NCBI GenBank assembly: GCA_000010565.1
Contig: AP009389.1
Coordinates: 558,001-622,000 of the forward strand
Origin: Pelotomaculum thermopropionicum SI
GTDB taxonomy: Bacteria; Bacillota; Desulfotomaculia; Desulfotomaculales; Pelotomaculaceae
DNA length: 64,000 nt
Direction of reading: 5' to 3'
Each line of letters begins with the position of its first letter. Within the stretch, counting starts at the first letter, position 1. Made by a program: the position numbers and the translations under genes. Below, in pieces: positions 3,748 through 57,386 of this stretch. Below the pieces are notes generated by a model, which worked only from the letters and a program-made list of their open reading frames with translations, did not search any database and had not been told where the DNA came from.

Positions 3748-4521
3748 ATGATTACCGTAGGAATAGATGTAGGGTCCATTACCACCAAGGCGGTTTTGCT
3801 GAACGGGTCTGCCTGGCGGAGCGTGATCAGGCCTACCGGGTGCAGCCCTCGCGAGGCGGGACGGGAAGCTTTAGAAGAACTTCTGAACAGGGCCGGCCTG
3901 GCACGCGGAGATGTGGACTTTATCGTCGGGACCGGTTATGGGCGGGTGTCCCTGCCTTTTATTGACAGAGCCATTACTGAAATAACCTGCCACGCCAGGG
4001 GCGCTCACCATCTTCTGGAAGGAGCCGACATGGTCATCGACGTGGGCGGCCAGGACAGCAAGGTAATTATAACGGATGGAAAGGGCAATGTGGTCAACTT
4101 TGCCATGAACGACAAGTGCGCCGCCGGCACCGGGCGGTTTTTGCAGGTGATGGCCGCCGCCCTGGGGGCCGATGTAAGCGAACTGGGCGAGCTGTCGCGC
4201 GGTGCTGAGCCCGTGCAGATCAGCAGCATGTGCACGGTCTTTGCCGAGTCGGAGGTAATCAGCCTGCTGGCGCAGGGGGTGGGAAAAGAGAGGATAATAG
4301 CCGGCATCCACCGTTCTGTCGCCGTGAGGATAGCTGCTATGGCCGAAAGGCTGGGCAAGGGCGAGTTAATATTATTTACCGGCGGCGTTGCCAGAAACGA
4401 AGGGGTAAGGGAGTTCCTTTCCAGAGAACTGGGGAGGGAGGTAATTGCCCTGCCTGAGTCCCAGCTTGCCGGCGCCCTTGGCGCCGCCGTGCTGGCACGG
4501 GAAATACTTAATAGAAAATGA
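3748..4521 (+). CDS. 2-hydroxyacyl-CoA dehydratase/DCCP-type activase
   Basis: A 257-residue ASKHA-fold ATPase of the BcrA/BadF/HgdC type. These iron-sulfur activases use ATP to inject low-potential electrons into a partner reductase. Visible motifs: phosphate-1 loop GIDVGSITTK, GTGYGR, DVGGQDSKVI, the KCAAGTGRF cysteine and the second cluster cysteine in SSMCTVFAESE, and the adenosine loop FTGGVARNEG. The two cysteines would hold a [4Fe-4S] cluster between subunits of a dimer. I chose ATG 3748 (upstream GAGAGG) because the family starts here; the frame stays open 123 bases upstream with no homologous residues. Its likely partner is the double-cubane protein at 10530. Confidence 0.85.
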   Translation: MITVGIDVGSITTKAVLLNGSAWRSVIRPTGCSPREAGREALEELLNRAGLARGDVDFIVGTGYGRVSLPFIDRAITEITCHARGAHHLLEGADMVIDVGGQDSKVIITDGKGNVVNFAMNDKCAAGTGRFLQVMAAALGADVSELGELSRGAEPVQISSMCTVFAESEVISLLAQGVGKERIIAGIHRSVAVRIAAMAERLGKGELILFTGGVARNEGVREFLSRELGREVIALPESQLAGALGAAVLAREILNRK

Positions 4522-6386: not shown

Positions 6387-6483
6387 GGGGAGAAAGGGGA
6401 TGGTTCCCTCCACGGGCTGCAAACCCGCTGGCCGGCCCGTCGTGCGGGCTGGAGTCCGGTTCGATTCCGACTTCTCCCCTCCA
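6387..6483 (+). tRNA. Selenocysteine-tRNA-shaped tRNA-Cys (GCA)
   Basis: A 97-base gene including encoded CCA. The acceptor stem has eight pairs (6387-6394 with 6472-6479) instead of seven. The D arm has a short four-base loop (6397-6400/6405-6408). The anticodon loop at 6417-6423 reads CTGCAAA, so the anticodon is GCA (6419-6421, cysteine). The variable arm is very long, eight pairs (6432-6439/6445-6452). The T arm (6454-6471) has five pairs with one bulged C at 6456 and loop TTCGATT. The discriminator is T6480, the cysteine identity base; tRNA-Sec normally has G. This fits the minor tRNA-Cys with an extended acceptor branch and a bulge reported alongside tRNA-Sec variants. It lies inside the Sao operon. 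Confidence 0.9.
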
Positions 6484-8479: not shown

Positions 8480-9261
8480 GAGTAATGCGCGAGAGAATCA
8501 TCGGAGCATTTGGCCGCAAACAGGCATTGTACCGCATGATTTCTGTCGCGGCAATTTTTGGAGCGTGGCAACTGGCAGCCAACCATTACCACAGCAATTT
8601 TTTAATGCCGTCTCCATGGAAGACAATGGTCACATTCATTTCCGTGGTGCATGACCCGGAAGTTGTTAAAAACCTCCTGATAACTTTAAAGAGGGTTTTG
8701 ACTGGCTTTCTTTACGCTCTGATGATAGGCGTCCCGTTAGGTTTCCTGATGGGCTATTCGAAGGCCGTAATGAATATTTTAGACCCTCTTATCGACTCGG
8801 TCAGGCAGGTCCCGATCATGGCCTGGGTGCCGCTTACCATAGTCTGGTTCGGCCTCGGCGACGGGCCTACGGTATTTTTAATAGCCTTTGCCGGAGTCTT
8901 CCCGGTTATCCTCAACACCATTGCCGGAGTGCAGAACATCCCAAAAGATTATTACAACGCTGCCCGCAGCATGGGGGCCGGCCCGTGGAGCATATTCGTA
9001 AACGTGATTGTTCCCGGCTCCCTGCCGGATATTCTCACCGGGGGCAGGATTGCCGTGGGCCTGGGCTGGATGTCTGTCATATGAGCGGAGTTTATCGCGA
9101 CGAGTGCCGGTTTCGGCTACTCCATGGTAGAAGCCCAGTCGAGAATGCAGACTGATAAGTTGATGGCCCTGATGATCATGGCCGCCCTGGTCGGATACGG
9201 AATAGACCGGGTTATCCAGCTGTTCAACAGGTCTATAACAAAATGGAGGTTTGTCCAATAA
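8431..9261 (+). CDS. saoP: ABC permease with in-frame UGA (SaoP-type selenoprotein)
   Basis: A SsuC/TauC-like inner-membrane permease. The frame from ATG 8431 (SD AGAGGAG upstream) meets TGA at 9082-9084 after 217 codons. The same frame then continues with family sequence (AEFIATSAGFGYSMVEAQ, then MALMIMAALVGYGIDRVI) to TAA at 9259-9261, giving 276 residues, the normal length. The UGA falls in the EAA-loop region that contacts the ATPase. A hairpin with a GGU apex follows it, and the true stop overlaps the ATPase start. The simplest reading is selenocysteine at residue 218. A nonsense mutation or base error is the alternative. A start at ATG 8485 is also possible. Confidence 0.75.
9102..9122 (+). 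promoter_or_regulatory. Candidate bacterial SECIS element in saoP
   Basis: Bases 9102-9109 pair with 9114-9117 and 9119-9122, leaving one bulged T (9118) and a GTTT loop; opening the last pair gives a GGTTTC loop. Twenty-four bases separate the TGA from the first loop G, within the spacing known for bacterial SECIS hairpins, whose apex carries GGU and which have a bulged U. Here the bulge is on the 3' side, unlike E. coli fdhF. Confidence 0.5.
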
Positions 9262-10055
9262 TGGAATTAAGAGTTGAAAACCTTTCCAAAGTTTTTGTGA
9301 TCGGCACCGTTGCCTACACAGTTCTAAAAGAACTGACCTTTTCCGTGCACGAAGGCCAGTTTGTGGCCCTGCTCGGCCCCTCCGGATGCGGCAAGACCAC
9401 CCTGCTGACGATCATAGCCGGTTTTCAGGCGGCTTCGGGCGGGAGGGTCCTCGTAAACGGACGCCAGGTGACAAGACCCGGGCCTGACAGGGGCTTTGTT
9501 TTTCAGAACTACGCGCTCTTTCCCTGGATGACGGTCAGAGACAACATCCTCTTCCCCATGAAGCAGCGCAGGGTTCCCGCGCCGGAACGGGAAAGGCGCT
9601 TGAAAGAACTGCTGGCCATGGCCCAGCTTGAGGGTAAGGAGAGATTATACCCGCACCAGCTTTCCGGGGGAATGAAACAGAGGACCGCGTTCGTCCGCGC
9701 CCTGGCCGGCAGGCCGGAAGTGCTCCTGATGGATGAGCCGCTGGGCGCGGTGGACCACCAGATGAGGCAAACCCTGCAGGAAGAGCTGGAGGCGCTGTGG
9801 CTCAAAGACAAAACCACCGTAATTATGGTAACGCATGATGTCGATGAAGCCGTTTACCTCGGCGACAGGGTTATTGTCATGTCGGCCCGGGAAGGCAGGA
9901 TTATAGAAGATACTCCCATTAGCCTGCCCCGGCCCAGGGACAGGAAGAGCAAGCGATACGGCAAGTACAAGGAACACCTTGCCGGTATTCTTAAAAATGA
10001 TGTAGTCAGGGACCCGGATTTATTGCGGCAGGAAAGCAGGCTGTCCCTTGCTTGA
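9261..10055 (+). CDS. saoA: ABC transporter ATPase (SaoA-type)
   Basis: A 264-residue SsuB/TauB-like nucleotide-binding subunit. Walker A is GPSGCGKTT, the Q-loop is FVFQNYALFPW, the signature is LSGGMKQR, Walker B is VLLMDEPLGAVD, and the switch histidine lies in VMVTHDVDEA. The ATG at 9261 shares its A with the permease stop (TAATG), with GGAGGT at 9245-9250 inside the permease gene; an upstream in-frame ATG at 9243 would overlap that site. The tight coupling shows that ribosomes are expected to translate the permease frame beyond its UGA. Confidence 0.9.
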   Translation: MELRVENLSKVFVIGTVAYTVLKELTFSVHEGQFVALLGPSGCGKTTLLTIIAGFQAASGGRVLVNGRQVTRPGPDRGFVFQNYALFPWMTVRDNILFPMKQRRVPAPERERRLKELLAMAQLEGKERLYPHQLSGGMKQRTAFVRALAGRPEVLLMDEPLGAVDHQMRQTLQEELEALWLKDKTTVIMVTHDVDEAVYLGDRVIVMSAREGRIIEDTPISLPRPRDRKSKRYGKYKEHLAGILKNDVVRDPDLLRQESRLSLA

Positions 10056-34994: not shown

Positions 34995-35155
34995 AAAAAT
35001 AAATTGCCGGGCGGCATTGCGAAAGTCCAGGCCGGCCCGGCTTATAGGTCCCAAATCCAGCTCTCCTTTTCGCAATGGAAGGCACACCGGTTTCCCGGTA
35101 CACCCTGCCGGCCAGGTACCATGGCGTCGAGCTTTAGGTTACCTGGCTCGGAGAG
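34995..35155 (-). promoter_or_regulatory. Moco/Tuco-like riboswitch with terminator
   Basis: On the minus strand CTCTCC (35155-35150) and GGAGAG (35066-35061) close a multi-helix element, with a CCAGGTA/TACCTGG arm and a GTGTACCGG/CCGGTGTGCC arm inside. It is followed by a hairpin GCCGGGC/GCCCGGC (35041-35035 and 35012-35006) and a T-rich run. A CCGAGCC block at the 5' end and a GAAAAGGAG block at the 3' end resemble the molybdenum/tungsten cofactor riboswitch; the downstream genes bind tungstate. I rely on memory of that motif, so the class is provisional. The rest of 34875-35415 holds no gene. Confidence 0.55.
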
Positions 35156-35415
35156 TATGATTTTTAATTTTTAGCAATATTTATCTTCGGCAGTCAGGAT
35201 AAGAATTCCTTCTCAGATGTAAAATTTAAAAATTGTGAATTCAAAGTTTTACAGAAACCGGAACGCCGTCCATCTGCCGGCACAACATATAGCAGAGAGG
35301 GGCCTTTAGTTTTCCGGAAAACATTTGCCGGGTTGAGTATCCGTTTATTTCACTGTAAACTTAAATGCAGAAAGCACATTGTAAAAAGCACATTTTGCCT
35401 GGCGTTGGGGGCTGT

Positions 35416-51769: not shown

Positions 51770-51962
51770 ACTAAAAACTAATTGAGTTTAGCTACGTGTT
51801 GGACGAACCTGTCCGGGTTCGTTTTCAAGGTTTGAAGGCTTCTGGGGTGGGAAGTCAAGTTATTTGGTTTCCCACCTTAAATTTTATCACAGCAGACAAC
51901 TTTATTTAGCATAATAAGTTGTATGTGAAAATTGGTTATATTGTTAAATAACTACATAACTC

Positions 51963-52199
51963 CTCTATCGCTGAATTCTTTAAAAAAGAAGCGGGGGAAC
52001 CAAATTTTCAGGGGTGAATCGAATTCAGTAGTTAGTAGTGAGTGGCCGGTAGCCAGATAAAAAGTAATTCGCTGAGGTTGAGGCGAATTCCAATAAGCAA
52101 TCTGACTGCTGAAAGCCGGTAAACGACTACTGAAATCGTAGGGTTACTCTTTCGACCCGAATCCGTCAGCTAACTTCGTAAGCGTTGAAAGGGGAGGAT
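51963..52199 (+). ncRNA. c-di-AMP (ydaO/yuaA) riboswitch
   Basis: The conserved blocks of the ydaO/yuaA aptamer occur in order: CGCTGAATTCTT near 51969, GCGGGGGAACC, GGGGTGAATC at 52011-52020, then CCCGAATCCGTCAGCTAAC at about 52157-52176 and AAAGGGGAGG at the end. These correspond to known GCCGAAUCC, GGGGUUAAUC and CCCGACAGCUAAC blocks. A terminator follows at 52247, so binding of cyclic di-AMP would switch the operon off. Confidence 0.85.
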
Positions 52200-57283: not shown

Positions 57284-57302
57284 GTTATTGAAAAATATTT
57301 TC

Positions 57303-57352
57303 TGGCGATGGGGCTCGCCTTAATTTTGCTGAAAAAGCTGATAGCTCCTACC
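57303..57352 (+). ncRNA. Fluoride (crcB) riboswitch
   Basis: The stretch has GGCGATGGGGCTCGCC, a short linker, then AAAGCTGATAGCTCCTAC. This is the signature of the fluoride riboswitch (known forms read GGCGAUG-G-CUCGCC and GCUGAUGGCUCCUAC). GGGGCT (from about 57309) can form the pseudoknot with AGCTCC (57343-57348). Those last bases also form one arm of the terminator at 57343-57386, so fluoride binding would allow readthrough. Confidence 0.9.
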
Positions 57353-57386
57353 CGTAAGTGTTATGTTGCCGGTAGGAGCTTTTTTA
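57343..57386 (+). terminator. Riboswitch-controlled terminator
   Basis: AGCTCCTACC at 57343-57352 pairs perfectly with GGTAGGAGCT at 57371-57380, followed by six T residues. Its 5' arm overlaps the fluoride aptamer pseudoknot, so the two structures exclude each other. It lies just upstream of the GTPase start. Confidence 0.9.

What the first reader, a model, noticed from the sequence alone, without database searches (positions are those of the whole stretch)
6387..6483. tRNA-Cys in a tRNA-Sec body, embedded in a Sao operon
The RNA has an 8-bp acceptor stem, short D loop, 8-bp variable arm and a bulged T arm like selenocysteine tRNA variants, but anticodon GCA and discriminator U73 make it a cysteine tRNA. 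Minor tRNA-Cys species of modified 8/4 architecture with one bulge have been reported. What is striking is the location: it sits between saoC and a substrate-binding gene of a cluster rich in paired cysteines and with an in-frame UGA. It may specialise in delivering cysteine to this system or act as a regulator of Cys/Sec usage.
Basis: partly seen in the sequence, partly recalled or inferred. Interest (0 to 1): 0.9.

Follow-up and report, generated by a model that had tools for sequence, protein, structure and literature searches.

The report
Sec-like cysteine tRNA inside sao operon
The window holds a real, known kind of odd transfer RNA (a cysteine tRNA built like the selenocysteine tRNA, thought to put cysteine at selenocysteine UGA codons); what is new is that it sits inside a selenium/metal operon that has such a UGA codon, and that relatives carry the same gene in the same place with its codon and amino-acid identity letters changed.

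Summary
Positions 6387-6483 (+) encode a 97-nt tRNA with an 8-bp acceptor, short D loop, long variable arm, bulged T arm, anticodon GCA, U73 and encoded CCA, between saoC and saoX. ARAGORN calls it tRNA-Cys; Rfam calls it tRNA-Sec. It is a "selC* tRNA-Cys", a kind already described. A review reports that the Desulfotomaculum nigrificans version is delivered by SelB, not EF-Tu, and reads UGA as Cys. The window's acceptor and T arm are identical to those of the Desulforamulus putei homologue.

The "dedicated to sao" idea fails as a rule. Across 113 genomes of the class, sao and this tRNA body are not associated (8/16 against 60/97). All 17 GCA genes in a GTDB-wide pattern scan lie outside sao operons. 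Only in the window's family is the gene in the operon (8 genomes, same saoC-saoX site).

The real surprise is in those relatives. Their same-site genes have anticodon UCA with A73, not GCA/U73, although the relatives sampled also keep a normal tRNA-Sec (UCA/G73). The operon's saoP has one in-frame UGA with a SECIS-like hairpin, aligned with Cys elsewhere. Best reading: a SelB-dependent Cys-at-UGA decoder, later converted in relatives to an exact UGA reader of unknown identity.

The parts
6387..6483 (+). selC*-type tRNA-Cys, 97 nt, with encoded CCA
   Evidence: ARAGORN, Rfam RF01852, covariation
6387..6394 (+). 5' strand of the 8-bp acceptor stem (GGGGAGAA), pairing with 6472-6479 (TTCTCCCC)
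   Evidence: sequence; 99.6% of pair cells standard in 29 relatives
6419..6421 (+). anticodon GCA (UCA in same-site genes of relatives)
6480..6480 (+). discriminator U73 (A73, once G73, in UCA-type relatives)
3748..4521 (+). acyl-CoA dehydratase activase
   Evidence: TIGR00241, 267.6 bits
4543..4797 (+). saoT, thioredoxin-like protein
   Evidence: NF040730, 142.1 bits
4798..5898 (+). saoE, efflux transporter
   Evidence: NF040736, 544.5 bits
5895..6368 (+). saoC, Cys-Cys-COOH protein; stop codon 18 nt before the tRNA
   Evidence: NF040734, 163.9 bits
6537..7670 (+). saoX, ABC substrate-binding subunit; starts 53 nt after the tRNA
   Evidence: NF040735, 527 bits
7679..8479 (+). saoB, substrate-binding protein (CC where the family model is named CU)
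   Evidence: NF040727, 320.4 bits
8431..9261 (+). saoP, ABC permease with an in-frame UGA (selenoprotein form)
   Evidence: NF040733, 436.6 bits read with TGA=U; UGA aligns with Cys in other lineages
9082..9084 (+). in-frame UGA (Sec codon) of saoP
9102..9122 (+). SECIS-like hairpin GAGUGCCGGUUUCGGCUACUC with a bulged U, 17 nt after the UGA
   Evidence: near-invariant at the DNA level in all UGA-bearing saoP genes; same hairpin in three genomes, though not more stable than shuffles
9243..10055 (+). saoA, ABC ATPase
   Evidence: NF040729, 418.8 bits
10101..10433 (+). saoD, DsrE-related protein
   Evidence: NF040732, 192.8 bits
10530..11819 (+). double-cubane-cluster anaerobic reductase
   Evidence: NF040772, 503.6 bits

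Best explanation
The RNA is a selC*-type cysteine tRNA. It is probably charged with cysteine by the genome's single CysRS, because it has U73 and GCA. Its 8-bp acceptor, short D loop and long variable arm make it a cargo of the single SelB rather than of EF-Tu. SelB would place its cysteine at SECIS-marked UGA codons, in competition with Sec-tRNA-Sec, giving Cys-for-Sec versions of selenoproteins, for instance when selenium is short. The saoP UGA, 2.6 kb downstream in the same operon, is a natural target, because other lineages carry Cys at that position. The gene is tightly packed between saoC and saoX, so it is probably cut out of the sao transcript. In sister genera the same-site gene was changed to UCA/A73, an exact UGA reader that has lost the main Cys identity letters. 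Shown here: structure, identity letters, location, conservation, single cysS and selB, the SECIS-like hairpin after the saoP UGA. Taken from the literature: SelB delivery and Cys at UGA for the GCA type. Inferred: charging, saoP as target, the selenium-shortage role, the direction of the switch.
For: Acceptor 5' strand and last 32 nt are identical to the Desulforamulus putei gene, a genus-mate (from memory) of D. nigrificans, whose GCA-type tRNA is reported to be delivered by SelB and to decode UGA as Cys (PMC11415595). All 33 GCA-type genes read here have U73 and CCA, as do the 17 of the GTDB scan. U73 plus GCA are the major Cys determinants (PMC9976931). The genome has one cysS and one selB, one ordinary tRNA-Cys and one ordinary tRNA-Sec. 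saoP UGA with a conserved SECIS-like hairpin; Cys at that place in saoP of other lineages. In three genomes of another family the GCA gene lies directly before yedE, a putative selenium transporter, a second selenium-linked setting. Relatives changed the anticodon to an exact UGA match, the direction expected if UGA is the codon read.
Against: GCA pairs properly with UGC/UGU, not UGA, so ordinary Cys decoding stays possible. The saoP UGA is kept in sao operons that lack the tRNA, so the tRNA is not needed for it. No charging, EF-Tu or SelB assay was possible. The A73 change in relatives would be expected to weaken CysRS recognition, so the Cys role cannot simply be carried over to them.
Confidence: 0.58

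Rival explanations
1. It is a spare cysteine tRNA that reads UGC/UGU through EF-Tu; its Sec-like body has no special role.
For: GCA anticodon, U73, encoded CCA; 51 Cys codons in the cluster, 42 of them UGC.
Against: An ordinary tRNA-Cys is present. The Sec-like body is kept across many families with compensatory changes. A review says the D. nigrificans form does not interact with EF-Tu. UCA versions in relatives cannot read Cys codons.
Confidence: 0.18
2. It is dedicated to the sao system, as supplier of cysteine or as an RNA regulator of the operon.
For: Same site, saoC-saoX, in 8 genomes of the family; association within the family of 25 genomes (9/10 against 4/15, Fisher p 0.004).
Against: No association in the class. 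GCA genes elsewhere are outside sao operons. sao operons without it. Intact tRNA kept where sao genes are deleted (L222) or broken (L235). A stand-alone copy in G471 while its sao operon has none.
Confidence: 0.1
3. The gene reached the sao gap by chance and is only a passenger or a processing site; in relatives the UCA/A73 form is drifting towards a pseudogene or a non-aminoacylated RNA.
For: Five of nine UCA genes lack an encoded CCA and the discriminator has changed. Gene and operon come apart in both directions.
Against: In the UCA genes 96.6% of pair cells are standard with 4 doubly changed pairs, anticodon loop CUUCAAA in all nine, while flanking spacers differ in sequence and length.
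Confidence: 0.14

Closest known systems
selC* tRNA-Cys (Mukai et al. 2017, as reviewed in PMC7609411 and PMC11415595)
   Same: Sec-like body with 8-bp acceptor, bulged T stem, U73, GCA anticodon; anaerobic Firmicutes; D. nigrificans form reported to be SelB-delivered and to read UGA as Cys
   Different: Bulged base is C (review: A51a); lies in a sao operon; no selB* or cysS* partner, unlike the delta-proteobacterial sets. Same-site relatives have UCA with A73, whereas the review gives U73 as the mark of the kind
Canonical bacterial tRNA-Sec (selC)
   Same: Long acceptor, short D loop, long variable arm, Rfam RF01852 match
   Different: Own genome's tRNA-Sec is a separate gene (UCA, G73, 63% identical); the window RNA has GCA/U73
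Minor 8/4 tRNA-Sec and tRNA-Sec with sense anticodons (e.g. Aeromonas salmonicida, GCA)
   Same: Sec-like body with unusual anticodon or bulge
   Different: U73 marks Cys, not Ser/Sec; a normal UCA tRNA-Sec is also present
SAO (Sec-assisted organometallic) operon
   Same: saoT-E-C-X-B-P-A-D all found above curated cut-offs
   Different: A tRNA gene between saoC and saoX; most Sec positions here are Cys, only saoP keeps UGA

Membership tests
selC* tRNA-Cys | tRNA-Sec-like body (8-bp acceptor, long variable arm, short D loop) | tested here: met
selC* tRNA-Cys | one bulged nucleotide in the T stem | tested here: met
   GUC[C]GG/CCGAC; base is C rather than the A51a of the review
selC* tRNA-Cys | Cys identity letters U73 and GCA (or UCA) anticodon | tested here: met
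   same-site relatives do not meet U73
selC* tRNA-Cys | charged with cysteine, delivered by SelB, not by EF-Tu | not testable with these tools
   reported for D. nigrificans; acceptor and T arm identical to D. putei
selC* tRNA-Cys | linked selB* / cysS* (delta-proteobacterial subset only, not required of the kind) | tested here: not met
   one selB, one cysS, neither in the window
canonical tRNA-Sec | UCA anticodon and G73 | tested here: not met
   GCA, U73; true tRNA-Sec at C1:993839
SAO operon | saoA, B, C, D, E, P, T, X homologues together | tested here: met
   class-wide 8/16 against 60/97; met only within one family

The most novel reading that the evidence does not exclude
In the window's family a cysteine tRNA in the sao operon was converted in place into a second UGA-reading tRNA (UCA/A73) that is neither standard Cys nor standard Sec. 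It would deliver another amino acid (Ser or Sec through SerRS and SelA, possibly Leu given A73 plus a long variable arm, or Cys through a tolerant CysRS) at SECIS-UGA codons beside the normal tRNA-Sec. The window would preserve the state before the switch.
Probability: 0.35. Interest if true: 0.78.

Novelty: new member of a known kind. Interest (0 to 1): 0.55.

Why it matters
Organisms with two tRNAs for one recoded codon are rare. Here a Cys-type, Sec-shaped tRNA shares an operon with a gene that has a SECIS-UGA codon, and close relatives carry the same gene at the same place with both identity letters changed. That gives a natural series (GCA/U73 to UCA/A73) on a nearly constant body in which to test how a tRNA changes amino acid and codon, and whether anaerobes use Cys-for-Sec substitution to keep selenoproteins going without selenium.

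Tried and rejected
Mukai 2017 and Vargas-Rodriguez 2018 are not in the library, so their content comes from reviews. Extra cysS or selB in tRNA+ genomes of the family: no second full gene. Extra in-frame UGA in sao genes of UCA-type genomes: none beyond saoP. tRNA remnants in sao gaps that lack the gene: essentially none; one of eight (G483) only marginally above the 95% shuffle score. Common neighbour of GCA genes across the order: none; yedE in one family, arsC in another, an activase once. The first cysS tree used a wrong-frame reference and was redone. Fetching the named P. thermopropionicum record: not held.

Full report
WHAT IS THERE. Positions 6387-6483 (+) hold a 97-nt tRNA gene. ARAGORN calls tRNA-Cys with anticodon GCA and finds no other tRNA in the window. 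Rfam's tRNA-Sec model matches at 49.6 bits against a gathering score of 47. The sequence gives an 8-bp acceptor (GGGGAGAA/UUCUCCCC), a very short D loop, anticodon loop CUGCAAA, an 8-bp variable arm, a T arm with one bulged C, U73 and an encoded CCA. Across 29 distinct related genes 96.3% of pair cells are standard and 15 of 29 pairs show changes on both sides, against 3.1 in shuffles. That alignment was fitted to the model, so the counts lean towards it.

SURROUNDINGS. NCBIfam equivalog models, all above cut-off, give saoT, saoE, saoC, [tRNA], saoX, saoB, saoP, saoA, saoD, then a double-cubane reductase; an activase lies upstream. The gap from the saoC stop to the tRNA is 18 nt, and from the tRNA to saoX 53 nt, so the tRNA probably comes from the operon transcript (inference). 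saoP has one in-frame TGA at 9082-9084. It aligns with Cys in saoP of other lineages and is followed 17 nt later by a hairpin with a bulged U, near-invariant in sequence in all UGA-bearing saoP genes. The hairpin is no more stable than shuffles; the support is its conservation.

OWN GENOME. The genome is one contig of 3,025,375 bases, which by memory is the size of Pelotomaculum thermopropionicum SI; the name was not tested. It has one ordinary tRNA-Cys, one ordinary tRNA-Sec (UCA, G73), one cysS and one selB.

LINKAGE TEST. SaoX occurs in 16 of 113 genomes of the class. A covariance model of the sao-linked tRNA (R1) matches at 50 bits or more in 68 of 113 (matches not fetched were counted by score only). 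Overlap is 8/16 sao+ against 60/97 sao- genomes, Fisher p 0.42. A pattern scan of GTDB r220 genomes gave 25 loci (window genome withheld): 17 GCA, all U73, none in a sao operon; 8 UCA, of which six lie in a sao operon, one in a sao remnant and one alone. Inside the window's family the gene sits in the saoC-saoX gap of 8 genomes including the window, and there tRNA and sao are associated (9/10 against 4/15, p 0.004), though these genomes share ancestry. In G492/L222 the order is reductase, activase, tRNA, saoD fragment, molybdopterin oxidoreductase: the other sao genes are gone and the tRNA remains. In G471 the tRNA lies elsewhere and the intact sao operon has none. So gene and operon do not depend on each other.

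IDENTITY SWITCH. All 33 GCA genes read here have U73. All 20 canonical tRNA-Sec genes read have UCA and G73. The nine UCA genes of the sao-linked type have A73 eight times and G73 once, and five lack an encoded CCA. The family genomes sampled with the UCA gene also have a canonical tRNA-Sec. The UCA genes are not plainly decayed: 96.6% of pair cells are standard, four pairs are doubly changed, and flanking spacers are far more variable. The window gene is closer to most GCA genes of other families (79-91%) than to UCA genes at its own site (78-83%). In a cysS+selB tree the window genome branches at an unresolved base of the family, so it may keep the state before the switch; a reversal or a replacement cannot be excluded.

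HOW IT PROBABLY WORKS. A review states that in Desulfotomaculum nigrificans a GCA tRNA-Cys with Sec-like structure decodes UGA as Cys, is not bound by EF-Tu and is delivered by SelB (PMC11415595). The window gene's acceptor and T arm are identical to those of Desulforamulus putei. With U73 and GCA as the main Cys letters (PMC9976931), the window RNA most likely gives Cys at SECIS-UGA codons, with saoP as a same-operon target. In another family the same GCA gene lies directly before yedE, a putative selenium transporter. Charging, delivery and targets were not tested here.

WHAT IS NEW. The tRNA itself belongs to a known kind. Its place in a sao operon and the same-site UCA/A73 relatives were not found in the papers searched; the two primary papers could not be read, so priority is unproven. 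Some relatives are metagenome assemblies, but P. propionicicum MGP (L227) is a named strain.

Noticed in passing
L112, L106, L115 (tRNA at 1501-1597 in each): In three genomes of family f143 the GCA tRNA lies directly before yedE (putative selenium transporter, TIGR04112) and a YedF/TusA-like gene: a second selenium-linked setting.
   Followed up: partly
G474, G475, G482, G483: Second (in G474 third) selB genes or fragments occur in the family clade that lacks the Sec-like tRNA; one in G474 is about 17 kb from a sao operon.
   Followed up: no
L084 7738-7989, L085 7442-7693: saoT has an in-frame TGA in G383 and G418, so these sao operons keep a second Sec position.
   Followed up: no
L076, L077, L071: G474 carries two sao operons and G482 two saoX genes in tandem.
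   Followed up: no
L216: A record titled Actinobacteria carries a GCA gene that looks identical to one of family f143 (L115), probably misbinned or transferred.
   Followed up: no
window 35047-35165, 51797-51856, 51959-52199, 57295-57357: Molybdenum/tungsten, sodium, c-di-AMP and fluoride riboswitches above Rfam gathering scores.
   Followed up: no
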